Below are positions 1-47,251 of a stretch of DNA of 64,000 nucleotides, one piece after another; position 1 is the stretch's first letter, and each line of letters opens with the position of its first letter. The position numbers were made by a program, and so were the translations under genes. Under the pieces are notes generated by a model, which saw only the letters and a list, made by a program, of their open reading frames with translations, had not been told where the DNA came from and searched no databases. This DNA is from Bimuria novae-zelandiae CBS 107.79. Its lineage: Eukaryota > Ascomycota > Dothideomycetes > Pleosporales > Didymosphaeriaceae. The stretch lies in the NCBI GenBank assembly GCA_010015655.1, contig ML976804.1:1-64000 (forward strand), read 5' to 3'.

Positions 1-70
1 CAAAAAGAAAACCCTGCGATTCGATGGGCAAATAGTCCAGGTGCTGACAGGCACTATCGCAGCTGCACAA

Positions 71-1626
71 TCAATATTGTTCCCAAACCGCTGAAATGAA
101 GGCGAGGTCTGCGCCAGCCACTGTCCTGACCCCATCAAACCGAAAGCGTGGGTCAGCTTCCCTGAAAAGTTTATCCCAGTCTGTCTGCTCTCTCTCCTTT
201 GCGTTGAAAAGCTCCATCATTGCGAGGTCAAATCCTCTATCGGGATATTAGTGGTTCGGTCAGTGAGTCCGATTCTATGGTTCCCAATGAAGGCCCCGGG
301 TTATACGCACCTCGTGATCCCTTCCCGATACCAGGATGTTTCGCCCGAAGCAGGCACAACGAAGTCCGAGACAATAATCCTTGCGCCAGACTTCAATGCA
401 GGTATCAAGGCCTGTAGAAGCCTGGTGCAGTACTTATCCGGCCAGTCATGGAAGATCCAGCGAAAATGATATACATCGGCACCATGCACTGGCTGATCCT
501 TGAAAAAGTCGTGCGCCATGAACGACACCCTCTGCTTTAGCTCTACAGGTATCGCATCCTGCGCCTGCTTTTCTAGGACTGGGTGGTCCTGTACGACCAT
601 TGTTAATTCCCGCAAGCGAGTGGCGAGGGCTACAGCTGTTGAACATGTTGAGCCGCCAATGTCGACAAACTGCCGCACATCGGTCCAGTCGAAAGCCTCG
701 CACAAGTGATGTGGGGCTAGATCTTTGTTTGAGTTGAAATACACCATAGCATTGGCGAATCTCAAAGCTCGCTCCGGCTGGTCCAACAGCATATCAAATA
801 CATGAGTTTTCAGGTCGTGCGCTAGCGCGTACCCCTAGAAATGCGTGAGCTGCTGTGATAAGTGTCGAGTGCTCAGAAAATTACCGAGTGCTGTGGCTCT
901 TGCGAATCGGGCCACTTGAGCAACGCGTTGACCGCCTACAGCATGTCAGTACTGCGACACAGCGAAGGTAAGACAGGGGATTCATTGGACCTGTGTTGCA
1001 GCTGGCCACATCTCTTCGCAGACCATCCCGATCCACTCCATCATCATAGGTGATTCAGAGAGCATTCTGGATGTCGCTGAATGAGCTAGGCGCTCGCCAG
1101 TAGTCTCTCGGAAGATGTGCTTCGTAATGGCGTATCGCGCAATCCGCCGGATGGCATCTTCACCAACGCCAGTTCTCTGGGCAATTTCCGTGTAGCTGAG
1201 GCTTCCACTCTCCGGTAACATATCAGGAAGCTTCAGTTTGTAAAGCGCGTGTAAGTTGATCAAATTGACATGCTGCACCTTCTGTCAGGACGCCCATGGT
1301 AAACCATACGGAACACTCACGGCCAAAATCTGATTATGGACGTGCATTCTCGGTCCTTGTACAAGTGCTTGTAGCTCCGTTATTAGTTCCATCAATTCAT
1401 TCTGTAGTTTCCATCCCTCCAGCGGTAAGCTGTCCATCCTCAGTGATGATGCATCGTGGGAAGGTAGAGGACAGTTATTCTCGCGCAGAATAGTAACAAA
1501 ATGTTGTGTCTTGCAAGCTATCTCTTGGGCCAGCCTTTCGGTCTCTGAAGGAGTTCCATCAAGATTCGCGCGAAATTTTGGGTCCATTTCCATAAAAGAT
1601 GAAAACAAGTAAGATGATAGATCCAT
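71..1626 (-). CDS. Fungal O-methyltransferase of the RiPP cluster, five exons
   Basis: Class I SAM-dependent O-methyltransferase of the fungal secondary-metabolite type (sterigmatocystin 8-O-methyltransferase group). Exons on the minus strand are 1321-1626, 991-1281, 885-935, 311-834 and 71-236; all phases join without a stop and give about 445 residues, normal for the family. The N-terminal winged-helix part (residues 100-200) contains QHVNLINLHALYKLKLPD. The SAM-binding motif VDIGG lies near residue 273 and the catalytic histidine in FHDWPD near 345. Three introns have GT-AG ends with CTGAC-like branch sites; the donor at 990 (GTCCAA) is weak and the 39-bp intron at 1282-1320 is very short. 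It lies 79 bp from the 3' end of the adjacent UstYa gene, same strand. Inferred job: methylating a hydroxyl or carboxyl of the modified peptide. The family call is firm; the substrate is unknown. Confidence 0.88.
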
Positions 1627-1648
1627 CGCATCTTGTGCAGCAAGTCAA

Positions 1649-1657
1649 CATTTGAGC
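1649..1657 (-). promoter_or_regulatory. Cluster motif GCTCAAATG, copy 1
   Basis: The 9-mer GCTCAAATG reads on the minus strand 23 bp upstream of the methyltransferase start. The same 9-mer occurs at 2656 and 3807, both in intergenic spaces of this cluster. It could be the site of a pathway regulator; no regulator gene is visible in the window. Its position so close to the ATG would place it in the 5' leader. Confidence 0.3.
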
Positions 1658-1704
1658 GAACGCCAGATACGCTTTGGCTCCTGTTCATACAGTAACATGA
1701 TCAT

Positions 1705-2488
1705 TCAGGCAGGTCCGCGACTATGGTGGCTGACTGCAGGTAAAGGTGGGGCATCCGTAGCCTCCCAAGGCTGAATCCACTCCAGAAGTCCCTGCCAATC
1801 GACGCATCGGTGTTCAGTACCAAAACCGGTCACGCCCCCGAGCTCTGTATCCTTTGTCTCAACTGTGAGATCTGCGTTGCACATAAGACTTTGCCGTAAC
1901 AGGTCGATGCAGTGACGGATATGGCCGAGGGAATGCTCTGGTGGCTCAGGCTTTTGATCCCTCGCTTCCCGCTGTAGACCAGAGTTTTTTGCGTATGCAA
2001 TGACTTGGTCATGCAACACATAGAAGCCGTGCCGCATTTCGTCTAGGCAATGAAGCTGGTGAAAGACAGAGAACGCGGACCGATCTGGTGCGAGCTGCGG
2101 ATGCACGAAGAAGCCGCCGTGTTTGGGAAAGAGTGACTCCCAGGCCGCATCAGTCTCGTTTGTAGGAGGCTTTCCGAACGTCCCGTTGTATTTGAACAAT
2201 TGATTTCTTGCGTGTACTGTGGCATATTAGTTCCACAGCTTCAACTTTGACGAAGTGTCAGAGCCTACGTCCGAGATTGTTTCTTTGGTAAGGTGGTGCC
2301 GAGTTCATTCCCGCAAAGAAACTGAGGAAGACAAGAGCAAGCAAGGACAATATTTTTAGCATCCATTTCAAGAGCGAGGACGGAGTTTGTGTCTTATTTT
2401 TGGTAGCCATTTCGTCGTCAATCATATAGTTGCTTTGCAATGGATTATAACCGCTTGGCCTAACTCCGAGAAGCGCGAGGAAGTTCAT
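1705..2488 (-). CDS. UstYa-like (DUF3328) oxidase 1
   Basis: Member of the UstYa/DUF3328 family, whose proteins oxidatively cyclise ribosomal peptides in ustiloxin-, phomopsin- and asperipin-type pathways. Exons are 2269-2488 and 1705-2216 (minus), with an intron at 2217-2268 starting GTAGGC and ending CCACAG; the product is 243 residues, the usual size. A single membrane anchor lies at about residues 43-61 (LKILSLLALVFLSFF), followed by a lumenal domain. The two diagnostic HxxHC motifs are HQLHC (about 126-130) and HIRHC (about 172-176), the second followed by IDLLRQSLMC. It is transcribed divergently from oxidase 2 across a 291-bp gap. The family call is firm; which bond it forms is not known. 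Confidence 0.92.
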
Positions 2489-2655
2489 TTCGTCTGGTGA
2501 AGAAAAAGTTCATCTAGTGTTTTCTCGGAGAGTTAAATGTAGAAACTTCAGGATATGATGCGATTGTAAATACCGCAGGAGAGATAGGAGTGAGACGGTG
2601 ATGTGCAGACGCACGCCCGCTGTTGGGATTACAAAGACAAATGGGAGGGCTAAGG

Positions 2656-2664
2656 GCTCAAATG
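2656..2664 (+). promoter_or_regulatory. Cluster motif GCTCAAATG, copy 2
   Basis: GCTCAAATG in the divergent promoter between oxidases 1 and 2, 168 bp and 116 bp from their start codons. It is flanked by AAGG on the left and CCTT on the right, as is the copy at 3807, so each copy sits inside a short inverted repeat. Confidence 0.35.
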
Positions 2665-2779
2665 TGGTCCTTGCCCATTTTGCTCAGAACATGCATCCCT
2701 TCTGAAGCCCACTCGGATCGCCTTTGAAACCACGGCTTTTGAGAACCACATCACGCTCAGGCCTACAAAAAAGCTCTCC

Positions 2780-3693
2780 ATGGATCATCATACGAGACAA
2801 CAGAGCGAATGCCTCCTACCCGATCGCAAAGCTGGAGAGCTGGCGTTCAGAAGCCGACGCCATCGATGGGCTTTCTTGTTTCACATCGTTCTGTTCCTGG
2901 TCAATACCGGTGTCACTATTCTCTTTCTTGCTAGAATCTATGGACAGGATACCATAAATACATTGAGTAAATAATGCACATGATTCCGAACTAAAGCAAG
3001 TACTTACTGTTGTTCCTAGGTTTCACGGGCCAACGTCTTGCGGTTCGTCCGCAACGCTTCATGATGACCGAAGACAGCCCATACGCTGGCCCGCCAAGCG
3101 AAAGGGTTGACGAAGCATGGAAGAAGCTTCTTCATCATATCAATATTCGCGTTTCCCACGGAGAAATGCAATCCACTAATCAAACATCCGTTCCGCTAGC
3201 CGATGGCAATGGCTTCCTTGCGTGGATGGATGTCAGCCACCAGCTGCATTGCGTGGTTTGTGACTTTCTCAGCATTCCATGAAAGTTTTTTGCTTAGACT
3301 GATAATGCTCTTGCAGAAATACTTGCGCCAATGGATCTACCGCCAGCACTACCATCCAGATGTCGGACTTGATGAGGAACCGCATTGGCTGCTACACATA
3401 GGCAAGTTTATCTCCGGCTGCATCGACAACGACCGCATCCTTTGGACACTCTAACAGGATCTTCAGACCATTGCCTGGATTTGATACGACAAGCGCTCAT
3501 GTGCCGCGCTGATACTTCAATCATGACGTTCAATTGGGTGGCAAATCGCTCGGAGCCAATGCTGAAGTTGGACTCCCCGGAGCATGTTTGCATAGATTGG
3601 GAAGACCTGATGAGGAAGGTACAAGACCGCAGAATCGACAATGCCGCAATGGCGCAGCTGGTGAACCCCAGCCTTGACTCGAAGTTTGTATAA
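2780..3693 (+). CDS. UstYa-like (DUF3328) oxidase 2
   Basis: Second UstYa/DUF3328 protein. My exon model is 2780-2966, 3020-3255, 3317-3401 and 3467-3693, 244 residues. The third intron (3402-3466) has a GC-AG donor (AG|GCAAGT) and a CTAAC branch site at 3451; using the acceptor at 3466 restores the second motif HIDHC (about 168-172). An alternative acceptor at 3457 stays in frame but would lose the first histidine. The first motif HQLHC is at about 136-140. A membrane helix spans about residues 30-52 (HIVLFLVNTGVTILFL). The C-terminus carries the family's CIDWEDL-type segment. Expected to act in the secretory pathway on the precursor peptide together with its two neighbours. Confidence 0.9.
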
Positions 3694-4277
3694 GACTGTA
3701 CTGGGTAAGCACGACGGGCGCAGCGGTCTGCTGCATGTTAGATTAATCCTGTAAGTCAAGGCTGACATGCATCTTAGTAGTTGTCATGACGGACAAGGGT
3801 TGTAAGGCTCAAATGCAACCCTTGAAAATGTTGAGAACTTCATTACCCAATACTACCACAGCTTCTTGCAGCCTTCATTAGCATCAATTCCAGATCGTCA
3901 TGCGGAGTGCGTATGTCACCCCGGCAAGTGGGTGAGCGGGTAGATGGCCGTGATTGGTTTGTGCCGGCAAAGCGCATAGTGTTTTGACTGCCGAGCCTGA
4001 GCGTCGGGGCGAGAAGCGCTTCCATAGAGCATGACTGAGGCATGGGTTATCCTGGGCCGGGATTTTCTCGACCCTAGTATGTACGCATACTGTTTTGGAG
4101 AAGGAACAATATCACAGACTTGACTCAGATCCGTAACGTCCCTTGGCCTCACAATGCGGCGGTTGGGGTTCGGCAAAAGATTTTACCATGCAACGTGCAA
4201 AATTGGGTTCCAGGTAGTTTTCGAGGTTTTGCGACATTTTCCAGACAACTTCTTACTTCAGTTTCTACAAAATCATC
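3694..4277. other. Intergenic, no gene seen
   Basis: This 584-bp stretch lies between oxidases 2 and 3. Short open frames on both strands lack family features. It contains copy 3 of the cluster motif and presumably the oxidase 3 promoter. Confidence 0.6.
3807..3815 (+). promoter_or_regulatory. Cluster motif GCTCAAATG, copy 3
   Basis: GCTCAAATG 463 bp upstream of oxidase 3, again bracketed by AAGG and CCTT. A one-mismatch form, GCTCAAATA, occurs at 5305-5313, 573 bp upstream of the precursor gene. Confidence 0.35.
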
Positions 4278-5253
4278 ATGTCGAAGGATTACGAGCATCA
4301 TACAGTTGAAGAAACCGAGCCACTGCGCAGAGATACATTCGATGTGATACGACACCCCTCGGATCCGAAGGAGTCGTCCAGAAAGTGGAAATCACTCATC
4401 GGTCTTCTCTTTGCTTCTACAACGATTAACATAGCCCTGTTGTTGTCAAACACCTTAGCATGGCCTTCATGGACAACACGCCATAACCTTTCACCATACG
4501 GTATGTTTGCTGTTTCCACATTGTTACTCAAGCCCGCAATACTCACGGACACGACAGCACAACTTGCTCGGGACCTGCCCGTAAAATATAATTCTCACTC
4601 CCCGTTCGGATTGGGGAGCGCCACTGAGGCTGAGAGAGCTGTTGCCTGGGAGAGTCTCGACTCTAGCGCAGGGGAGATAAGCCTAGATAAGATTTGGGCG
4701 AAAGTTCGGGCGTTGCCCAGATCAGCGACCTTCTTTTGGGACGACAGTCGCGATATTTATCTTCTCAATGCGCACCACAGTCTCCACTGTATGGTCAGTC
4801 ACCACGCAACTCAAATCGGAGCCTTATTAATGAAAGCAGCGCAAAGTCCGACGTTCTATCGTGCTGTACAACTATGGTCGCCCACAGCTCGATTCATACA
4901 CACACCTAGTTCATTGTATGGATCACCTGTTGCAAAACATCATTTGCGAAGCTGACGATACACCGTTCTACACTTCGACAACTTCCAATATCACCACTGG
5001 CCAGAATCAAGTGCGGATGTGCCGCAGCTGGGATAAGCTGACGGCGTGGGCTAATAAGCAACAAGCCTGCTTTAGTTACATCAATGAGACCCAAGGGGTG
5101 AATGATGTGATAGATCGCTTCAGATATTGCCCCAAGGATAGTCCACTCTTGAAACCCATGCGCGAGTATTTTGGTTATCCTGAAGGCTGGTTCGAAGAGC
5201 GTCCGAGGGACATAGACACTTTGCCCCGTTACTGGGAAGGCTTAGACATGTAA
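4278..5253 (+). CDS. UstYa-like (DUF3328) oxidase 3, divergent and longer
   Basis: Third UstYa-family protein. Exons are 4278-4500, 4558-4793 and 4840-5253, giving 290 residues with consistent phases. A membrane helix lies near residues 40-58 (SLIGLLFASTTINIALLL). The motifs are HSLHC (about 148-152) and HLVHC (about 175-179), the latter followed by MDHLLQNIIC. It differs from its two neighbours in a shorter spacing between motifs (27 residues, against 46 and 32) and in a longer C-terminus with extra cysteines (MCRSWDKL, QQACFSY, FRYCPKD). The first intron is a multiple of three and open, so retention would add residues rather than stop translation. Position and family point to a separate oxidative step. 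Confidence 0.87.
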
Positions 5254-5885
5254 ATGGGGAGATGTATGCAAGTCGAAGCAGATGGCACCCTCTTGCATCT
5301 CAAAGCTCAAATAGGAGTGATTCTTCGGCGGAACGCACTCGTCTCACGCGCACCTATGTGGAATTAGTGAAATGTTATTTCATCGGTGAGAAACTGGGTT
5401 CCAATATATGCAGTGTAACAGCGGATTTCTGCAATGTAACGTGCATATCTAGGTCTGCATCGGGTGTCAGTTTCGGTGTCCGAAGGGTCCCAGGGTTTCG
5501 TGTCCACCGGAAAGCGCCTAGGATCAACTACCGTATCATAGTGATACCAAAATCGTGGGACGAATCTCGCCTTTATGATAGTATAATTGGCGTGAGATTG
5601 AATTTATCCTAATTTTTAAGTGCTTCTTCGAATCAATATCATTGGATGCTAGCATCGTCGATCATTCATAGAGTCCGAGACATAACAAGGGTATCGCGTA
5701 CTGACAAGGACTGATGAAAGCAATGATCAGATCAAGTACTCTACCAATCAGCCTTGGCAGCCTTCGTAGCACGTACTCATATCTCCATAAGACCGTTACC
5801 CTAAGCCACACACGACTCATCTACTGATCACCCCGTTAACTCTCTTTTTGGACGCCAAAGCTTTCCTCCTCTTTCGTTAGCCATC
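5254..5885. other. Intergenic, promoter region of the precursor gene
   Basis: No convincing gene; a 116-codon open frame at 5262-5612 shows no family features. A near match to the cluster motif (GCTCAAATA) is at 5305. A CT-rich stretch precedes the precursor ATG, as is common in highly expressed fungal genes. Confidence 0.5.
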
Positions 5886-6193
5886 ATGCGCATTGCTTTC
5901 TCCTTCGCTCTCGTGAGCCTACTCTCCATCGGTCTTGGCGCTCCCGCTCCCGCAAGCAAAGGTAATCATGACTGAGATCAATCATATTCATATCCCTGAT
6001 CTTGTCAGATGTGGTATCCAGCAGTGATGACGATGCGAAAGTAATCTACCCCGACTATCGCCGCTCCGCGGAAGTCACTAGCAGCCACGCCGACGACGAT
6101 AGCAAAGTTATTTACCCCGACTATCGCCGCTCCGTGGAGACTACAAACAGCCATGTCGATAGTGATGCCGCAGTCATCTATCCTAACTATTAA
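5886..6193 (+). CDS. Repeat-containing secreted RiPP precursor (dikaritin-like)
   Basis: Short two-exon gene (5886-5961, 6009-6193; intron GTAATC to TTGTCAG) for an 86-residue protein. Residues 1-19 form a signal peptide (MRIAFSFALVSLLSIGLGA) followed by a PAPA stretch. The rest holds three units with the candidate core at 37-42 (VIYPDY), 59-64 (VIYPDY) and 81-86 (VIYPNY), an exact 22-residue period. Each of the first two cores is preceded by an acidic run ending in K (DDDAK, DDDSK) and followed by RR, a Kex2-type dibasic site; the third is preceded by DSDAA and ends the protein. Secreted repeats, basic cleavage sites and tyrosine-rich cores are the design of ustiloxin, phomopsin and asperipin precursors, and three UstYa oxidases lie upstream. 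I recognise no known product with this core, so the product is inferred to be a cyclic peptide of unknown activity. Confidence 0.85.
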
Positions 6194-6949
6194 GGGGGTG
6201 GATTCGTTGCGTCGGTTCCCAGGTTGAGGTATTGGAATTAGTAACACTAATTGGTGTATGAATTAATTATTTATGCCCTTTAGTAGTGGTATACTCTTAA
6301 ATCCCTCTTTGCTTTGCAATGTATGAATACGCGCAAATTCCCTTATAACCTATTTTATACAATTCTGGTATAGCTTCGTTTGTCTAGTATTGTGGATACA
6401 TGTGTCCCGACTATTCCTTGTAAACGGCCGTTATAACTATCGCTCGTGGCGTAGCCGCACGATTACAACTGCAAACCATAGTCCTATTAGTAAACTATAA
6501 CCACGAGGAATATTTATTTTATCTAGATCTTACTACTTAGAAGCATAGACACGTGCATCCTCGGCTTCCTCTATTATATATTTTATTTAGTTAAAGGTGT
6601 AGATTCTGCTTTCTAGAGTATTATCGCCAAATACATCCAACCCTGCATCCAGTTTCTCCCTAGCTAATTGGCCCAACTTCGACGCACGCTTAACCGTATT
6701 CGCGCTAGGTAGGACCCTAGCTCGCCTTACTAAACATTATAACGCAGGAGTCCTTCCCACGTGTTTACGTATACTACCTAGCTATCTCTTTTTACCCTAA
6801 GTAGTAAGCTAGCGTAGTTAGGGGGGTAAGGGCTATAAGACCCACGCGTCGTGTTTACGTTTATAGTTAGGAGTCTTATTGCCCCCTCCCTCTTTCCCCT
6901 TTCCCCCATCTTCTCTCCCACGTGTATATTGCAACCTGGCCATCCTTAC
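6194..6949. other. AT-rich, RIP-mutated boundary DNA
   Basis: Directly after the precursor stop the composition shifts to AT-rich DNA with abundant TA and TAG. No open frame is supported. The stretch probably includes the upstream part of the helicase relic and an older insertion too degraded to name. Confidence 0.5.
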
Positions 6950-7579
6950 TAACTACTAGTGCATTATTATAGGCCTCTTTCACTTCCTACTAAACTACTA
7001 AATATAAATATATATCCCATGCGGCTATAGCGTTAGGCTAAACTAATATATATCTTACCTTACGCGTTCGCACGCCGACCATTTAGAACTTAGCCTATTA
7101 AAGAAAGCGCGAATGCTACTAAGTAACGAGCTTATACTTAAGTGTCCTATAGACCTAGACTTGCCTAACTTCTAGTTGCTACCTACCGGCTAGCTTACTC
7201 TACCACACCTCCCTATATATAAAGGGCTATTATATCTAGAGTGCACCTATACTTGCACAGTAGCAAGAGTGCTAATAAGACACTTTAATAATAAATATAC
7301 TACCTACAAGCGTGCCCTAGAACGTTAACCTAAGGCTACTATAGGATCTACTTTCTAGTGGAAAAATGTTTCGTGCCAGCAGCTATTTAAATAAAAACCT
7401 AACTATAGCTACTTTATTATTATCCCGCATGCGAAAGATGCGGAAAACGAAAAAGTGTAGAGTTACTAGAAGATAGTAGTAACGTTATTTAAGGCGGAGT
7501 ATATACGCGCGCAAATTAATAAGGCCCTTAAAAAAAAATAAGAGAAGCATGCGCTAGAGGACGTAATTCTAGATAATAC

Positions 7580-7779
7580 TGTGAGGTTTGATGTTTGCCA
7601 CTGAGCTGATGGCTTGTTTTCCTTTTGTTTGTTTTTGATGTTTGCCACCGAGCTGATGGCTTATTTTCCTTTTGTTTGCTGTTTGCCAGTTATCTAGGAT
7701 GTTTGCGCCTGGGTATATAGGAGATAGCTTACCTCTAGTGGCAGAGGGGGATATACATTTTTTTAGTTATTGGTTCACA
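7580..7779 (+). repeat. 5' LTR of copia-A
   Basis: 200 bp, TG...CA. It contains an internal tandem duplication of about 47 bp (GATGTTTGCCAC-type units). It differs from the 3' LTR at about 11 sites. Confidence 0.9.
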
Positions 7780-7790
7780 GTTATGAGCCC
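7780..7790 (+). other. Primer-binding site of copia-A (initiator-tRNA anticodon arm)
   Basis: GTTATGAGCCC begins at the first base after the 5' LTR. It is complementary to the anticodon stem-loop of initiator tRNA-Met, the primer arrangement known for copia elements that use a tRNA 5' fragment. Confidence 0.7.
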
Positions 7791-7894
7791 GGCATAGTGT
7801 TTTGTCGGGTAACTCAGCTATTGCAGTCAGTGATCGCTCTTAGTCGTCTGATCTTTCACACATACCATTTGTTTGCCCTCTCCATACAATCACG

Positions 7895-8149
7895 ATGACG
7901 GCCGAATTGCAGGCAGCATCCCGAGCGATGGGAGTGATCCTTGAGACGCCTAAGGACTGGCAAGCTTGGTTATTTTTGCGTAAAGATACAGCGCAACAGC
8001 ATAGGCTGTATGAGTATGTGGATCCTAACGTGCCGGAGGCAGATTTGAAGCAATTAACAGCGCCTACTCCGCCGGAGCCAAAAGACGCGTTACCACGCGC
8101 AGGGGCAAATAGGGAACTAATCCTTATACTAGTAAATTATACTAAGTAA
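7895..8149 (+). pseudogene. Gag N-terminus of copia-A
   Basis: An open 84-codon stretch begins with a clear ATG and encodes a soluble Gag-like N-terminus (ETPKDWQAWLFLRK). It ends where heavy RIP begins; the downstream sequence continues as Gag in the same direction with many stops. This is the only sizeable uninterrupted coding segment left in the element. Confidence 0.6.
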
Positions 8150-11100
8150 GATTTTAACGATAAAGGGTTTACGCACTACTAATTCTTATATTAAAGGTAT
8201 AAGTAAGATCTTCTAGTATTTAAGCGTTAGTAGAGAGCGCTTGCTTTCTTTAACTCTAAAATAGCGCGCACTATATATTAACGCAATCTGTACTTACTAT
8301 AGGGTAAGAATATTACTTATAAATATCTAATTACCCTTAAGGCCTACTTATTGCTTACGACAACCGTAATTAAGCGCGAACTAAAAGAGAAGTATCGCTA
8401 GTTATACATGCTATTAAGAAATAAGAGTATAGAGATTTAGCTAAGGGACTAGCTTAACGTGATAAGGCAGGCGTATATAGTTTCGCTATTAAACGTCGCG
8501 GATAACTAATTAGTAGAGGATTTTCTAGTAGCTATTAAAGTAGTAAATCTAGAGTATAGAGCGCCTACGCTAATAAGTTATCTTAAGTAATAGCGCACTA
8601 GCTAGATAACTGCTCTATTATTAGAAGACAAGATCGCGACGTATAAGGACTACTTATAGATAACTTAACCTAGAGCCCTTTAACTTGTAGTAATAGCAAG
8701 AGAGCTTTAAGTAGCAAAGACTATCTAAGAGTTAGATAAGGATAGCTTTAATAATAAGGGCAAGAGCTGCTTATGTAAATTTTGCCACTAGTAAGAGAAC
8801 TACTATTACTTTAACCTACATGCTAAAGGCAGGCGCGTAGACTTTAAGGATAAGAAGTCTATACGAGAGCGTATTAAGAAGGCTTATAAGGACAACGCTA
8901 GCTTAAAAGAGAAGGTAGAGGAGTACCTAGGCAAATAGCGTAAGCGTAATAATATAGACATTAAGGAGATAATTATAGCGAACAACGGTAAAGCTCCTAC
9001 TACTCTAGCTACTTATACGGCTAATTTTACAGTAGAGGCTATCCTTATAGACAATAACTCTCTACTATTTAGAGATCTTGAAGTCGCAGCTATCGCAGAG
9101 GGTAACGGTTTATAGGACTACTAGATTCTAGACCTAGGTAGTAATACTTATATTATTAACTTAGAGGACTAAGTAGGCTAGGAAAGGCAACGTAAGGAGC
9201 ACAACGGCGGGACTATTACTACTAAAGTAAGTTATATTCTAGTAGAAGCCTAGGGTAAAGTCAGCCTCTCTATCTATACGCTGTCTAGTATTAAGAGTTT
9301 AGCACTTACTTACGTTGCTTTTATACCAGGCTTCTTAATAAGCGTTATGGGCCTGGGCCGCTGTCGTGATGTAGGTATTTACTTTAACTCTGGCAGAGAC
9401 GTTTTGTATAGGAGCTTAGGGGTGATTACTTATTTAGAGTACTAGCGGGGCCACTAGTTGCTTAACGTTAAGATAAGTAAGCGACTAAAGAAGCTAACAT
9501 TATTTACCTTTATAATAAGGATAGCGCTATTAAGGATACTAAAACCTGCCTAGAAACTTAGCGCGAAGCTTGCTTATGCTATATAAGGTTATCTATTAAG
9601 AAAGGCAATCTAACACTTATAAGATAATATAGTTAGCGTTAAAGTAACGGACGTTGAGTAATAGAACCTTAATTGCCAGGTTTGCCACGAGGCGAAGCTC
9701 ACGCAGCAGGTATCTAGGCGTACGCTAGTAGACATAGCGGAGCGCCCGTTTTATTGTATTGCTGTCAACGTTTTACAAATCCGCGAGCACGGAAAGCTCT
9801 GCTATAATCGCGACAGGTACGCTGCTTATGCGGTGGACGAGTACTTTAAAAAGAATAAGGTAGAAATAACTAGGACAAGAAACGCTAGAGAGTTACGTCC
9901 CTGGCTACTTAGCGTAATTTAGCAGATCTAAAGGCAGTTTAATTGCGACGTAATTGTTATAAAAGCTAACGACGAGAAAGGATTCAGGTTTAAGAGTCTT
10001 TATAATAAATTAGGAATACGCTTAGAGCTGCGGGTATTAGATATACTAGAGTAGAATAGCGGCGCTAAAATAGCTAGAAAGACGCTTAGCACGAGGGCGA
10101 GAGCGCTAACGTTGTAGGCTAACTTACCTAAGAAGCTAGCGAACGAGATGTATAAGACAATAGGGTACTTACTTGACTATACGCTAACAAGGTCGTTAGG
10201 CTGGAAAACTCTATATAAGATTATCTAGAGACACAAGCCTATCGTCTCCTACATGCGGCCTATTAGTTATTAAGTATACGTATTAAATAAACACCTGCTA
10301 AAGGCTGCAAAGACGTAGTCCAGGGCTCTTATTAGCTATCTTGTAGGGTATAATTTAACTAATATCTTTAGGATTTAGCTACTAATAAAGGACCAAGTTG
10401 TTCGCGTAAGAGACGTTATTTTTGACCTAAGTTGTTTTTATAAAGGCAGTAAAGATGGGTATAACGCGCAAGCTATTGCGAGATCTATCGAGCTATTAGA
10501 TATACTAGAGATGCCAAATAAAGATAATATTAAAGTGGAGGACTTACTAATAACCTGGCAAGCGCGAGCGCGTACATTACTCTAGTAATTAACTACGTCT
10601 GATAAGGGAGTTCTCTCCTAAGTCGAGCATAGAGTGAATAAGAAGGCTTCCGCAATTGCTAAGCAAGTTAAAGAGATGTAGCGTATAGTAAACGCTCTAT
10701 TTTGTGACATATCATGCCTAGTAGCTAGAAATCTGGATAATTGAGGCGACAACGTTATTTTAGACGAATAAATTTAAACGCTAGAAAACGAATTAGAGTA
10801 AGATAAGACTTAATTATAGTAGTAGCTCGGGGGTGAGGAGGATTTAGTGTTAAGGGAAAGAGTCTTAGCATAAGAAGATAAAGACACTTAATTTTTTAAC
10901 GCGTACTTAACACCGCCTTTACCTACCTAGTAACTAGTTGTAAACTATTCTGCGACTAAAATACTAGACTATATGCTTTACAGGCATACAAACAATGCTC
11001 CTTAGCGTTAAAACCTTAATTTTTTAGAGGAAAATCTTATTTTAGGCAGGCGTAAGCGTAGGCTAACAAACCGCAATAATCCTTAGTTACATGTGGCGAT

Positions 11101-12956
11101 TTTTAGCGCTAGGCGCGTTAACGAATATCTCTATACTTTTATAACTTTAATAAACGTTAAGCAAGGCTAAAATGGCAGATCTAGCTTTCTTAACGACTAG
11201 CGACTTTACAGGAGCTAATTACTGCCTAAACTAAAGTCTATACACTAGCTAAAGTATCACTAATTTGGCAAGTAATTTATAGAGGCCGTTTAATAAGAGT
11301 ATCGCTAGGTGTGGGATAAGGGCTGTTTCTGCAAGACAAAGATAACTAGAAAGATAGCGGCTAAGCAAGGTATTAAGGTACTCCTACTTATGTAGGTATT
11401 TAATTACAAGTTTAACGAGGACGGCTATCTTTACAAGTTTAAGGCGCGGCTTATTATACGAAGAGACCTTAAGGAGTAGTATAGAGACACTTATGCAGCG
11501 ACGCTGGCAGCACGAAGTTTTTAGGCCCTACTAGTAATTACTAATAAGTTTAACCTAGAGCTTTAGCAGTATAACGCGCCCAACGCTTTCTTAAACGCCC
11601 TACTTAATCGCAAGCTCTTAGTGGAGACCCTAGACGTCTTTAGCGACGATGGCGAGTTCCTAGAGGTCTTGCGCGCTCTATATGGTTTAAAGGAGTTAGC
11701 ACTACTCTAGCACAAAGATTTCTGTTGCATAGTCAAGAAATTGGGCCTTAAGCGTGTCCTAGGGTTCCCATGCTTATATATAAATAATTACCTTATATTG
11801 TTTATCTTTGTTAATAATATTATAATTGCCTACTATCGTAGTAACTAACGCTTATTCGACAGCATTGCTAGCAAGCTTGTTAAACACTATAACTTAAAGA
11901 TAATAGGAGAACTTACATGGTTCCTAGGCGTATAAGTACTTCGAGACAGGAAGCAGCGCAAGATTTGGTTATTATAGGATAAGTATATTAATAAGGTCGC
12001 TTATTAATTTAATGTGAAGCTAGAGGGCAAGACGCTAAAGGCTCTATTACTATAATACGCAAATAACTTATAGGCTTTTATAAAGAAGCCTAATGCCAAA
12101 CGACGGACGTATTACTAGTAATTAGTTAGTAGCTTAGTATATATTACTTACTAGACGCGTCTAGATATTGCGCGCTTGCATATTATTTTAGCATATTATT
12201 TTACTAATCCTAGGCAGTTGCATGTACAGTACGCACTTAAGGTGTGGGTCTATCTCTTAGTAATAAAGTACTACGCTCTCTAGGGTAGTAGTGACGACGG
12301 CGACGGCGCTACCGAAATCCTCGCTAGAGGTAACCTTGATCCCGTCTTTTATAGAGTATTAGACGCGTCGTATGCGGACGTTATAGAGACGCGCTAAAGT
12401 AGCTATGGCTATTTCTTCTTACTATATAATTTGCTAGTTAATTAGAGATCTACGGTGCAAAGGACCGTTAGTAAGTTAATAATAAAGACGGAGCTACTTG
12501 CTCTATTAACTACTAGATTATAACTTTAGGAGTAGTTGCGCTTTTTTAAGGGGATTAGTTTTAAGCTAAATAAGACGCTAGTTATTATATGTAACAACTA
12601 GCAGACAATAGGCATTATTAATAAGCAGGAAGACCGCCTAAAAACGAGCATTAAACACGTGGATATACACTAGATATAGATCTATTAAGAAGTAGAGGCA
12701 GGACGACTTTATGTAAGATAGGTGCTAATAACTAAGATGCTAGTAAACGGGCTCACGAAGTTACTCTTAAAGCAGAAATATGCGGAGTTTGTAAGGTAGC
12801 TCTATCTCGTGGATCTCCGTAGACGATTTGTCGGGAAAAACGTTAAGTAAAAAGCTTAACACCATAAAATCTAGCGATAGCCACTTTTACGGGTACGTCT
12901 ACGGCTTTATATACGGGGCGATTGCCCCTCCAGCATGTGGGAGGTGCAAGGGGGTG

Positions 12957-13156
12957 TGTAAGGTTTAATATTTGCCACTAAGCTAATGGCTTATTTTCCT
13001 TTTATTTGTTTTTAATGTTTGCCACCGAGCTAATGGCTTATTTTCCTTTTGTTTACTGTTTGCCAGTTATCTAGGATGTTTGCGCCTGGGTATATAGGAG
13101 ATAGCTTACCTCTAGTGGCAGAGGGGGATATACATTTTTTTAGTTATTGGTTTACA
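12957..13156 (+). repeat. 3' LTR of copia-A
   Basis: 200 bp, the same length as the 5' LTR. Every difference I found is G-to-A at TpG or C-to-T at CpA in this copy. Confidence 0.9.
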
Positions 13157-29971: not shown

Positions 29972-32900
29972 ATGGGCAAGGAAAAGGCCCAAGGGCCTGT
30001 GCAATACGGCCTGGAGAGCCCAGCGCACTCGTTGCCCTTTGAGGACGTCCTCCAACACTACGGCGTTGCACAGGACACCGGCCTGAATGATGGCGAAGTC
30101 AAGAAGCGCAAGGACATGTACGGCCTGAATCAGCTCGATGAGGGCCCCGGCGTGCAGCCTTTCCGCATCCTGGTCCACCAGATTGCGAACGCGCTTACCT
30201 TGGTGCTAATCATAGCCATGGTGGCCTCATTTGCCATCAAGTCGTGGATTGAAGGCGGCGTCATCACCTTCGTCATCCTCTTGAACATCGTCGTGGGCTT
30301 CTTCCAGGAGTTCAGTGCAGAGAAGACGCTCAGCAGTATTCGCGCTCTGGGATCCCCTACAGCTCGCGTCGTCCGAAATGGTCAATCAGTCGTCGTACCC
30401 ACAATCGAACTTGTACCGGGCGATATCGTCGAATTGATCACTGGCAACACGGTACCCGCGGACTTGAGGTGAGTGGCCCCGGCGCCCGTTATAACCCGTG
30501 CCGTTGCCGAGCTGTGCTGACCGAATCAGATTGATCGAATGTGTGAACCTGGAGACCGATGAGGCTCTGTTGACGGGAGAATCCCTTCCCGTGGCCAAGT
30601 CTTCGCATTCCACCTTTGATGCCGATATTGGCGCTGGCGATCGCCTGAACATCACCTTCAGCTCTTCGACTGTGACCAAGGGCCGCGCCAAGGGCGTGGT
30701 CTTTGCTACTGTAAGTGGGACTTCTCGACTGTTGGTCGACCATAACTAATCCGCATTAGGGTATGACGACAGAAATCGGCAAGATCGCCGCAGCCTTGAA
30801 GAAGCAGGGGTCCAAGATCCAAGCGGTGAAGCGCAAGGACGATAGCACTGCGGGCTTCCATCGTTATGTACAGGCGTGGGCGCTCACTGGTGGTGACGCC
30901 ATCAGCCATTTCCTGGGCATCAACACTGGCACGCCTCTCCAGAAGAAACTCTCCAAGCTCGCCCTCTTGCTATTCGGCATTGCCTGCCTGTGTGCTCTCA
31001 TCGTCGAGGCCGCGAACAAGTTCAGCGGCAAGAATGAGGTCGTCATCTATGCTGTGGCCACGGGGCTGAGTATGATCCCGGCCAGTCTCATCGTCGTCTT
31101 GACCATCACTATGGCCGTGGGAACCAAGCACATGAGCAAGAGGAACGTCATCGTGCGAAAGCTCGACAGCCTCGAGGCCCTTGGGGCCGTCACCAACATC
31201 TGCTCCGACAAGACCGGTACCCTTACCCAGGGACGCATGGTAGCGAAAGCCGCATGGGTAGCTGGGCGTGGCACTTTCAGCGTTGGCACCACTCGTGAGC
31301 CATTTGACCCAACTGAAGGAGAGATCACGTACCGTGAAGGCGCGCCGAGCGAGCAGGGTGCAACCGAGTCTGTTTTGGAGGCTTCCAAGGTTCGATCTGG
31401 TTCCGTCGTCACTGGAGCCGCCACCACTGAACGTTACATGAACATCGCCTCCATGGCCAACGTAGCTCACGTGCAGTTGGCTGAGGGCAAGTGGACTGCA
31501 CGCGGAGATCCCACTGAGATCGCTATCCAAGTCTTTGCTTCTCGATTCGGCTGGAACCGCCACGGCCTGGTAGGCGGCAACGACGACAGCGAAACGGGCG
31601 CCTGGCACTGTCTCTCTGAATATCCTTTCGACTCGGACACCAAGCGTATGTCGGTTCTCTACGGTCGACGCAGCCCAAGCGGTGAGAAATATGCTTCGCG
31701 ATGGGTTTTCACTAAGGGAGCTCTTGAGCGCGTTTTACCTCTGTGCGTTTCCATCCAGGATGAGCGGGCGAACCCCCGACCCATGTCGGATGCCGACAAG
31801 AAGACCATCAACGACAGCGTCGACTTCCTTGCCAACCAAGGTCTTCGTGTGCTCTGCCTTGCAAGCACCGAGTGGACTGGACCGGAGCTGGGCGACTACA
31901 GCGATGTCAAGCGTGCCGATGTTGAGCAGCAGCTCACCTTTTGTGGACTCGTCGGTCTCTATGATCCCCCTCGCCCAGAGTCTGCCGATGCTGTCGCTGC
32001 TTGCGCTCGCGCGAGCATCATTGTTCACATGTTGACTGGTGACCACCCCGGAACGTGAGTATAGCCCGAAGCTGTTGTGAAAGAAGGTGAACTAACCTAG
32101 AAATAGCGCCACTGCCATTGCCAAACAAGTTGGCATTATTCCCGATCGGTACGAACACCTGGCCAAAGATGTAGCGGACGCCATGGTCATGACGGCCATG
32201 CAATTCGACAAGCTCAGCGACACCGAGGTTGATGCCTTACCTGTACTCCCGCGTGTGATTGCCCGCTGTACGCCCCAGACCAAGGTTCGCATGATTGAAG
32301 CCCTCCACCGCCGTGGTCGTTTTGCTGCCATGACGGGTGACGGAGTCAACGATTCACCGTCGCTCGTACGCTCTGACGTTGGTATTGCCATGGGTCAAGC
32401 CGGAAGTGATGTCGCCAAGGATGCTTCGGATATCATCTTGACTGACGATAACTTCGCTTCGATTCTCAACGCTGTGGAGGAAGGTCGCCGCCTTTTCGAC
32501 AATATCAAGCGCTTCATCTTGCACGTCCTCGCTGAAAATATCGCGCAGGCTTGCACGCTCCTCGTTGGTTTGGCTTTCAAAGACGATGCAGGCAACTCCG
32601 TCTTCCCGTTGGCGCCCGTGCAGATCCTGTGGGTCATTATGGCGACTTCCGGTATGCCCGACATGGGTTTGGGAATGGAGATTGCTGAGCCGAACATCAT
32701 GAGCCGCCCACCGCACGATCTGAAGACGGGTGTCTTCAACACCGAGCTCATGGTCGATATGGCTGTGTATGGTCTTTGGATGGCGGCGCTATGCCTGGCG
32801 TCTTTCGTCCTCATCGTGTACGGCTTCGGCAACAGAGACCTCGGTGAGAACTACAACAACGCGTACTCCAAACGCTGCGATCTCGTCTTCCGCGCACAAG

Positions 32901-33388
32901 CAACCACTTTTGTCTACCTAACATAGTTCGCGCTCTTCCTCGCCTGGGAGATGGTCAACTTCCGACGCTCTTTCTTCCGTCAGAAGCCCCGTGGTCCCAA
33001 CTACCGCTGGTACCACGTCTTCTACTCCTGGTGGGAGGACAGCCGTACCAACCCCTTCCTTTTCTGGGCCATCATCGCCGGCTTCGTCACCATCTTCCCT
33101 ACCCTGTACATCCCCGTCATCAACCACGCCGTGTTCAAGCACGAGGGCATCACGTGGGAATGGGCCGTCGTCATCGTCGAAGCGACGCTCTTCTTCGCAG
33201 GCTGCGAGACGTGGAAGTGGGCCAAGCGTATCTTCTTCCGCAGGCGCGCCAGGAAACAGGGTGGTGGCAACGAGCTCGAAGCTGTGCGTCCGTCGGGCGC
33301 GGGCAACACGCTTGACTCGAGCGCTGACGCTTTCACCGTCGACCAGTCCACGGTTGCCGCGTCTGAGTTTGGCAAGCGGAGTCAATGA
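29972..33388 (+). pseudogene. ENA-type P-type Na+-ATPase with one in-frame stop
   Basis: Type IID P-type ATPase that exports Na+ (and Li+/K+) at the fungal plasma membrane. Exons 29972-30468, 30530-30710, 30760-32054 and 32107-33388 join in phase to 1085 codons, the full family length. Visible motifs: actuator TGES (exon 2), phosphorylation site CSDKTGTLTQG with aspartate at about 376, MLTGDHPGT, and hinge TGDGVNDSPSL. The only defect found is TAG at 32924-32926 (codon 931), where a tryptophan is expected (TGG to TAG, equal to CpA-to-TpA on the other strand). It would remove the last 154 residues, including late membrane helices. Without that change the gene would be a complete CDS, so a sequence error or readthrough is possible. 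Confidence 0.88.
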
Positions 33389-45731: not shown

Positions 45732-47251
45732 ATGAGACCTCTGCAATTGCTAGTCCCATTCATAATATCGATTTCGTTTGGACTCGCCCAAGATCCTGGA
45801 TTGTCCCCGCCTACTGAAACCTTTCCCAAATGCGCGGTACGATCTCGTTGGAATTCCCAAGCACATTTTCATAGATTAACTGGATTTGACAGCTATCGTG
45901 CCTTCTCACCTCAATACAAGATTCACCCTGCGAACTTTCGGACCAGAAGTGCATATGCACCAATGTTGAGCTACAAGGGAGCATCGAACTCTGCGTACGG
46001 CAATCTTGCACTGTTAGGGAAAGCCTGAGTGAGTGGCAGGTCGTCATCATCATTCGGAATATAGGCTGATTAGTTCGCACCTAGCCGCGAAGAATGCTAC
46101 CCAACCAATCTGCAATGTTCCTATGCGGTACAAAGGAAACACAACCCGTGCTTGCAGCCTGGTTTTCTCGGTTCTTTGCCCCTTTATTGTCTTCATACGA
46201 CTTTTATACAAGGCAATATTGTCAGCTACGGATCTGGGTTGGGACGATTGGGCCGTTCTTCTTTTACTATGTGTCAGCGCACCTTCTGTGGTCATCATCG
46301 ACAAATACGCAATTCCGTACGGCATTGGGAGCGACGTTTGGACTGTGCCTTTTGATCACATCACCGAATTTGTCCGCTGGTTATACGTGCTTGGAGTCCT
46401 CTACTTTCTCCAGATTGCACTCCTGAAACTTAGCATTCTCCTTTTTCTGTTGAGGATATTTCCTAGACCACTGACCAAACGGCTTCTCAAGGCTACCATC
46501 GCATTCAATTTGCTCTATGGCGGAGCTTTCGTCATTACTGGCATCTTCCAATGTCAACCTATCAGCTTCTATTGGACATCCTGGGACAAGAACCCAGCCA
46601 TCCGAGGAAAATGCATGAACATCAACGCCCTGAACTGGAGTAATGCCGTAATCGGCGTTGTGCTGGATGTTTGGATGCTAGCCATTCCACTATATGAAGT
46701 TTTTCACTTGCAGTTGTCGCTGCGGAAAAAAATCAGTGTAGTCCTGATGTTCTTCGTCGGTACATTGTACGTATTGCAGCTAGAAGGCATTCCGCAAAAT
46801 TTTCTGATCAGGTTCCAGTGTTACAGTAATATCAGCTGTCCGTTTACAGTCTCTAGTAACCTTCGCCGCCTCGTCGAATCCGACCTGGAATCAAGCCGAC
46901 GTCATCACCTGGTCACTTGTCGAGATTGGAGTAGGCATTGTATGCACTTGCATGCCCGCCCTTCGTGTCATCCTCAACCGCATGTTCCCTAAGCTTCTTG
47001 GCATGACCACGGACAGAAGTCAGCCATACTATGCGAACCACCCCGATCCCACCAACAACAGTGGAAGAGGTGGAAGCACGCTTGGCAGTGGGCTGAACAA
47101 GCAACAGAACACAAACGCTGGGGCTGCCCATGACCCCAATATTTCGAAAACTTCCAACGTGCAGCACACCGATGATGATGAGGTACAGCTGTTAGAGCTA
47201 GTTGAGCTGGCATCAAAAAACAGACAAAGCGCGGAGCAGAAACACGAATGA
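45732..47251 (+). CDS. CFEM-domain seven-helix receptor (PTH11-like)
   Basis: Four exons (45732-45836, 45893-46028, 46085-46766, 46819-47251) join in phase to 451 residues. Residues 1-19 are a signal peptide. A CFEM domain follows with eight cysteines at about 34, 38, 48, 55, 57, 69, 74 and 90 (KCALSCL, CICTNVEL, CVRQSC). After it come seven hydrophobic helices (LVFSVLCPFIVFIRLLY, DLGWDDWAVLLLL, LYFLQIALLKLSILLFLLR and others) and a hydrophilic tail. This matches fungal CFEM-PTH11 receptors, thought to sense surface or host cues at the plasma membrane. No defects were found, unlike most other genes in this part of the window. Confidence 0.88.

What the first reader, a model, noticed from the sequence alone, without database searches (positions are those of the whole stretch)
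71..6193. Apparently undescribed dikaritin-type RiPP gene cluster
A secreted repeat precursor, three UstYa/DUF3328 oxidases and an O-methyltransferase lie within 6.2 kb, all with intact frames. UstYa proteins cyclise ribosomal peptides in ustiloxin, phomopsin and asperipin pathways (established). The core VIYPDY/VIYPNY does not match any product I know, so a new cyclic peptide family is inferred.
Basis: partly seen in the sequence, partly recalled or inferred. Interest (0 to 1): 0.95.

Follow-up and report, generated by a model that had tools for sequence, protein, structure and literature searches.

The report
Conserved fungal modified-peptide gene cluster
A soil fungus carries five neighbouring genes that very likely turn a repeated precursor protein into a short, oxidised and probably cross-linked peptide; near-identical precursors occur in other fungi, but no product is known to us.

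Summary
The window lies in Bimuria novae-zelandiae CBS 107.79 (Pleosporales). Hand-spliced models give five open genes at exactly 71-6193: a PF00891 O-methyltransferase, three UstYa/PF11807 proteins, each with two HxxHC motifs and an N-terminal hydrophobic stretch, and an 86-residue secreted-type repeat precursor. Nine further proteins carry the same repeat: all 29 repeats of the ten proteins keep D-x-D-x-x-[V/I]-[V/I]-Y-P-x-Y; 19 are followed by RR and 10 end the protein on the core Tyr. So this is a dikaritin-type RiPP cluster by its gene-level definition, and its core matches nothing found in the literature searched. Cross-linking and methylation are inferred.

The parts
71..1626 (-). O-methyltransferase-fold gene (PF00891), 5 exons in transcript order 1626-1321, 1281-991, 935-885, 834-311, 236-71; 445 aa
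   Evidence: close relatives 65-77% identical in 15 other species; residue 280 in the SAM motif I differs from 15 of 15 orthologues
1705..2488 (-). UstYa1 (PF11807), 2 exons 2488-2269, 2216-1705; 243 aa; HQLHC at residue 126, HIRHC at 172
   Evidence: a UstYa1-like stretch precedes the OMT in six merged database gene models, which points to the same adjacency elsewhere
2780..3693 (+). UstYa2 (PF11807), 4 exons 2780-2966, 3020-3255, 3317-3401, 3467-3693; last intron GC-AG; 244 aa; HQLHC 136, HIDHC 168
4278..5253 (+). UstYa3 (PF11807), 3 exons 4278-4500, 4558-4793, 4840-5253; 290 aa; HSLHC 148, HLVHC 175
   Evidence: His and Cys of both motifs invariant in the 33 sequences aligned
5886..6193 (+). 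Precursor gene, 2 exons 5886-5961 and 6009-6193; 86 aa; hydrophobic signal-peptide-like N-terminus and three repeats
6041..6058 (+). Core 1 VIYPDY (followed by RR, 6059-6064)
6107..6124 (+). Core 2 VIYPDY (followed by RR, 6125-6130)
6173..6190 (+). Core 3 VIYPNY at the C-terminus (Ala instead of Lys before it; VIYPDY in the C184 copy)

Best explanation
This is a five-gene dikaritin-type RiPP cluster. The precursor enters the ER by its signal peptide (inferred from hydropathy). UstYa1-3, single-pass membrane proteins with a presumed luminal dicopper site built from two HxxHC motifs, oxidise the repeated DxDAKVIYPDY units, most likely joining a Tyr phenol to a side chain of Val, Ile or the other Tyr, or desaturating a residue (inferred from the enzyme family). 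Kex2 cuts after RR (site shown, cutting inferred), a carboxypeptidase removes RR, and an unknown peptidase trims the acidic spacer, possibly at the conserved Lys. [quoted passage not shown] The OMT-fold enzyme, which shows no membrane segment, probably methylates the released peptide last.
For: Open models and Pfam matches. Two HxxHC motifs in 3 of 3 UstYa, an N-terminal hydrophobic stretch in each, none in the OMT. Repeat conservation 29 of 29 at both Asp of DxD and at Y, P, Y; RR after 19 of 29, protein end after 10 of 29. Pairwise distances of OMT and UstYa3 correlate over 10 species (Pearson 0.96; 0 of 2000 label permutations reach it). Family biochemistry: dicopper DUF3328 enzymes form a Tyr-O to C-beta ether (passage in PMC12186524); UstYa homologues cyclise or desaturate (passages in PMC10512285).
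Against: No product, transcript or enzyme assay. UstYa proteins also serve non-RiPP pathways and do other chemistry (PMC12048977, section 22). In Xylaria cubensis the precursor is on another contig length than the other genes; in Nemania sp. FL0916 the OMT is; one of five precursor species and four of 15 OMT species had no UstYa row to compare. The contig starts 70 bases beyond the OMT, so the left border is unseen.
Confidence: 0.78

Rival explanations
1. The precursor gives a secreted peptide that is not cyclised: a signalling peptide cut by Kex2 and modified by the UstYa proteins only by desaturation or hydroxylation.
For: The core hardly varies between two fungal classes, which suits a signal better than a varying toxin; UstYa proteins are reported to take part in hydroxylation, chlorination and transacylation (PMC12048977 section 22) and desaturation (PMC10512285 passages).
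Against: Two invariant Tyr per core fit ring formation at Tyr; [quoted passage not shown]
Confidence: 0.14
2. The Bimuria cluster is decaying: the frames are open but it no longer makes the family's product well.
For: The third repeat has lost the Lys and, in the window copy, the Asp, both kept in the 28 other repeats; OMT residue 280 in the SAM motif differs from the Gly of 15 of 15 orthologues; Bimuria has the most private changes in the OMT (16, next 15) and in UstYa2 (6, next 4); the C184 copy of UstYa1 has a nonsense codon.
Against: In UstYa3 Bimuria is not the most changed (7; CAS-2024a has 8); two of three repeats and the HxxHC motifs of all three UstYa are kept; all five window genes are open; only 9 substitutions in 6193 bases between the two copies.
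Confidence: 0.25
3. The OMT-fold protein is not a methyltransferase but catalyses another step.
For: Its best-scoring solved relatives by sequence are 7bqj, HpiI (7bqo) and LepI, which I recall, from no call, as OMT-fold pericyclases or close to them; the SAM motif is altered in Bimuria.
Against: The His of the HDW motif, recalled as the catalytic base of plant OMTs, is present in all 16 sequences aligned, and 15 of 16 keep the motif I Gly.
Confidence: 0.1
4. The repeat protein is an unrelated secreted or structural protein that only happens to lie beside UstYa genes.
For: Short, acidic and repetitive; in Xylaria cubensis it is on another contig length than the UstYa genes.
Against: Same pairing in three other species, exact repeat and RR grammar.
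Confidence: 0.02

Closest known systems
Dikaritins (ustiloxin, phomopsin, asperipin-2a, epichloecyclin, victorin)
   Same: Secreted Kex2-type repeat precursor with UstYa/DUF3328 genes beside it (PMC10512285 passages); Tyr in the core; dibasic site after the core
   Different: Core not found in any paper held; three UstYa genes and a PF00891 OMT; no tyrosinase, reductase or peptidase gene among the five genes (left border missing)
Clan R1 RiPP clusters of lichen fungi (PMC12048977)
   Same: UstYa-type genes with an O-methyltransferase; the authors say OMTs had never been reported in dikaritin clusters (section 20)
   Different: Clan R1 has a tyrosinase and no repeated precursor was identified (passages and section 22); this cluster has a clear precursor and no tyrosinase seen
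Putative RiPP cluster of Hypoxylaceae (PMC8403587)
   Same: Cluster similar to the ustiloxin one reported in Hypoxylon rubiginosum among others (passage); a UstYa2 relative is found in that species (P0044)
   Different: Its core is not stated in the passages read, so identity with this family is untested

Membership tests
Dikaritins | Precursor with an N-terminal ER signal peptide | tested here: met
   By hydropathy only: 19-residue window 1.92 at residue 3; no signal-peptide predictor was available; three of the ten family models (P0007, P0009, P0010) do not show the same start
Dikaritins | Repeated core sequences separated by Kex2 sites | tested here: met
   3 repeats, RR after 2, the third at the C-terminus; same grammar in 9 other proteins, one with two repeats
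Dikaritins | UstYa/DUF3328 gene(s) next to the precursor | tested here: met
   3 genes within 4.2 kb of the precursor
Dikaritins | Core peptide oxidatively cyclised by the UstYa proteins | not testable with these tools
   Needs product or enzyme assay
Ustiloxin/phomopsin subgroup | Tyrosinase gene in the cluster | tested here: inconclusive
   None among the five genes; contig C149 starts 70 bases and contig C184 ends 120 bases beyond the OMT stop
PF00891 SAM-dependent O-methyltransferases | Domain match and SAM motif | tested here: inconclusive
   Domain match E 8.6e-27; motif I altered at one Gly in Bimuria, kept in 15 of 15 orthologues

The most novel reading that the evidence does not exclude
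A dikaritin family with a frozen core: one peptide, constant across Dothideomycetes and Sordariomycetes, made by three UstYa oxidases without a tyrosinase and finished by an O-methyltransferase-fold enzyme. If so it would be, as far as the papers read go, the first characterised dikaritin with an O-methylation (or OMT-fold) step, and its constancy would point to a conserved target such as a signal receptor rather than a fast-changing toxin.
Probability: 0.35. Interest if true: 0.68.

Novelty: new member of a known kind. Interest (0 to 1): 0.5.

Why it matters
A 2022 review counts five reported dikaritins (PMC10512285, passage), while a 2020 survey found 1758 of 7878 repeat-precursor genes with UstYa neighbours (PMC7329392, section 7). 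This family gives a small, clean system: a fixed C-terminal core end, an almost invariant core, three UstYa paralogues to assign one by one, and an OMT-type partner. Exact masses can be looked for in existing extracts of Xylariales.

Tried and rejected
Searching the text of 5.39 million papers for VIYPDY gave none; YPDY gave 73 papers, none of the 20 listed titles on fungal peptides. Two 2016 surveys and a 2025 UstY paper, sought by DOI or PMC id, are not held. Papers naming Bimuria novae-zelandiae: 17, of which 12 listed, none with a title on peptides or secondary-metabolite clusters. Solved structures gave nothing usable for UstYa: 0 hits, 4 hits at E 0.11-0.15 to an unrelated protein, 0 of 66 and 0 of 70 Foldseek hits at E<=0.001; the two models are of middling confidence, pLDDT 76.6 and 80.8, so absence of a fold match is weak. 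NCBIfam gave no name for two UstYa and the precursor. A UstYa-OMT fusion enzyme, suggested by six database proteins with both domains, was judged unlikely: in all six the UstYa part lacks its middle, including the first HxxHC stretch, and a second Eutypa lata model has the OMT alone, so they look like merged neighbouring genes; this is a judgement, not a proof. Horizontal transfer between classes was considered: the OMT tree puts Stachybotrys with the Xylariales group (98/95) and the Pleosporales outside, but 9 of 22 inner branches are open and transfer was not tested. Of 26 rows given to that tree 25 were used: my script cut P0114 wrongly and the tool dropped it; P0108 was left out as a second Eutypa row. 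A first repeat count missed 8 of 29 repeats by a script fault and was redone. No tRNA and no Rfam match in the window.
Full report
What is there. The window is the first 64000 bases of contig C149 (80968 bases) of a 77.4-Mb assembly. The precursor is identical to a protein of Bimuria novae-zelandiae CBS 107.79, a pleosporalean fungus. The database gives that protein a contig of 86514 bases, not 80968; C184 (21433 bases) does match in length the contig of Bimuria protein P0013. The species is named, second-hand, among potential root-rotting fungi of New Zealand white clover (passage in PMC5183635). Five genes fill 71-6193: OMT and UstYa1 run to the left, UstYa2, UstYa3 and the precursor to the right. 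All splice into open frames with short introns, and Pfam names four of them.

The precursor. It has a hydrophobic start and three repeats, D-x-D-[A/S]-[K/A]-VIYP[D/N]Y, the first two followed by RR. A search of 5.8 billion proteins gave ten proteins, this one included: Bimuria, Melanomma, Plenodomus, Annulohypoxylon, Nemania and Xylaria by name, and four unnamed. Melanomma and Plenodomus are Pleosporales (Dothideomycetes), Xylaria and Annulohypoxylon Xylariales (Sordariomycetes). Over 29 repeats in ten proteins the Asp at -5 and -3 and Y, P, Y of the core are 29 of 29; K 28, first core residue V 27, second I 28, D 28. The residues at -6 and -7 vary widely. Since 10 of 10 proteins end on the core Tyr, the C-terminal core end is fixed by the sequence. 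The N-terminal end is not: conservation runs on through DxDAK, which may be a recognition element, a cutting site at Lys, or part of the product. Among the three Bimuria repeats synonymous codons differ while most residues stay.

The enzymes. Each UstYa has an N-terminal hydrophobic stretch and two HxxHC motifs; in the alignment of 33 UstYa3-type sequences the His and Cys of both motifs are invariant; in that of 26 UstYa2-type sequences those of the second motif are, while the first motif is not listed as invariant (some rows are partial or misspliced). UstYa1 and UstYa3 are 29% and 19% identical to UstYa2. UstYa2 and UstYa3 each have their own close relatives elsewhere, 53-77% and 62-86% identical in the near group; for UstYa1 the close relatives seen are the stretches of 59-69% identity in the merged OMT models. 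The OMT has relatives at 65-77% in 15 other species, then a drop to 46%.

Conservation of the set. Orders looked up: Lentithecium and Pleomassaria Pleosporales; Eutypa, X. cubensis and N. serpens Xylariales; Stachybotrys Hypocreales; Seiridium Amphisphaeriales. Locus tags are neighbours where numbered, e.g. ACEQ8H_004740, _004742, _004743 and MGN70_009083, _009085. Six of 16 OMT rows are merged with a UstYa1-like stretch, and Seiridium rows merge UstYa2 with UstYa3, which gives the same order as in the window. The precursor has the contig length of a UstYa relative in Melanomma, Plenodomus and Nemania FL0916, not in X. cubensis; A. stygium had no row to compare. Distances of the genes correlate between species: OMT-UstYa3 0.96 (10 species), OMT-UstYa2 0.82 (8), UstYa2-UstYa3 0.73 (8), reached by 0, 4 and 1 of 2000 label permutations; common descent of the species alone would also give much of this. 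More distant sets occur in Sclerotinia nivalis and Alyxoria varia.

Two copies in the genome. Contig C184 holds a second copy; the OMT and precursor DNA find only these two close places. Within 1-6193 the copies differ by 9 substitutions; in the next 1386 bases by 46, 45 of them transitions. In C184 the third core reads VIYPDY and UstYa1 meets a nonsense codon early in exon 2. From about 6-8 kb to 20 kb the window has RIP-like composition and an LTR-type element, 7580-13156, without counterpart in C184. So the cluster sits at the edge of repeat-rich DNA, and the precursor is its right border.

How it most likely works. Shown: the genes, motifs, repeats, RR sites and their conservation. From the literature: UstY enzymes use a dicopper site to form a Tyr-O to C-beta ether (PMC12186524 passages) and UstYa homologues also desaturate (PMC10512285 passages); dikaritins are described as RiPPs from Kex2-processed repeat proteins cyclised by UstYa homologues (same passages). 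Inferred: that these three act on the VIYPDY unit with its two Tyr, that Kex2 and a carboxypeptidase free Tyr as the C-terminus, and that the OMT acts last. The best-scoring solved OMT relatives are 7bqj, HpiI and LepI, so a non-methylating role stays open.

Is it known? VIYPDY occurs in no paper held. The 2020 survey does not mention Bimuria, Xylaria or YPDY in its main text, but its supplement was not open to me. The Hypoxylaceae survey reports a RiPP cluster in related fungi without, in the passages read, giving a core. A lichen survey says OMTs had never been reported in dikaritin clusters and describes one in Clan R1 (section 20). So I call this a new member of a known kind, with an unusual enzyme set and an unusually constant core.

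Limits. No expression or product data. UstYa genes are common in this genome (53 exon-wise matches, both cluster copies included), and UstYa proteins also serve other pathways. The left border is cut by the contig end. Bimuria itself departs from the family in repeat 3 and in the OMT motif, so another species is the better place to look for the product.

Noticed in passing
window 7580-13156: LTR-type element with 200-nt direct repeats (95% identical) and RIP-like composition, without counterpart in the C184 copy; 8000-9500 has at least 43 matches in the genome, its own place included.
   Followed up: partly
window 1-7579 against contig C184 (L010, L009): Second copy of the cluster: 9 substitutions in the cluster but 46, nearly all transitions, in the 1.4 kb beside it; unclear whether paralogue or second haplotype, and why the duplicated cluster itself escaped RIP.
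   Followed up: partly
window 30763-32926: P-type cation ATPase pieces; 30763-32058 has further copies on C21 (98%) and C1 (84%), so another part of this contig is duplicated too.
   Followed up: partly
P0108-P0110, P0112, P0114, P0115; P0012, P0014, P0015: Public gene models that seem to merge neighbouring genes (UstYa1+OMT, UstYa2+UstYa3) and would mislead domain-fusion searches.
   Followed up: partly
P0042 and P0131 (Alyxoria varia); P0045, P0049, P0135 (Sclerotinia nivalis): Diverged relatives of the UstYa and OMT set on shared contig lengths; their precursor is unknown.
   Followed up: no
window 46033-46992: Open frame with a fungal rhodopsin domain, PF20684 E 2.1e-47.
   Followed up: no
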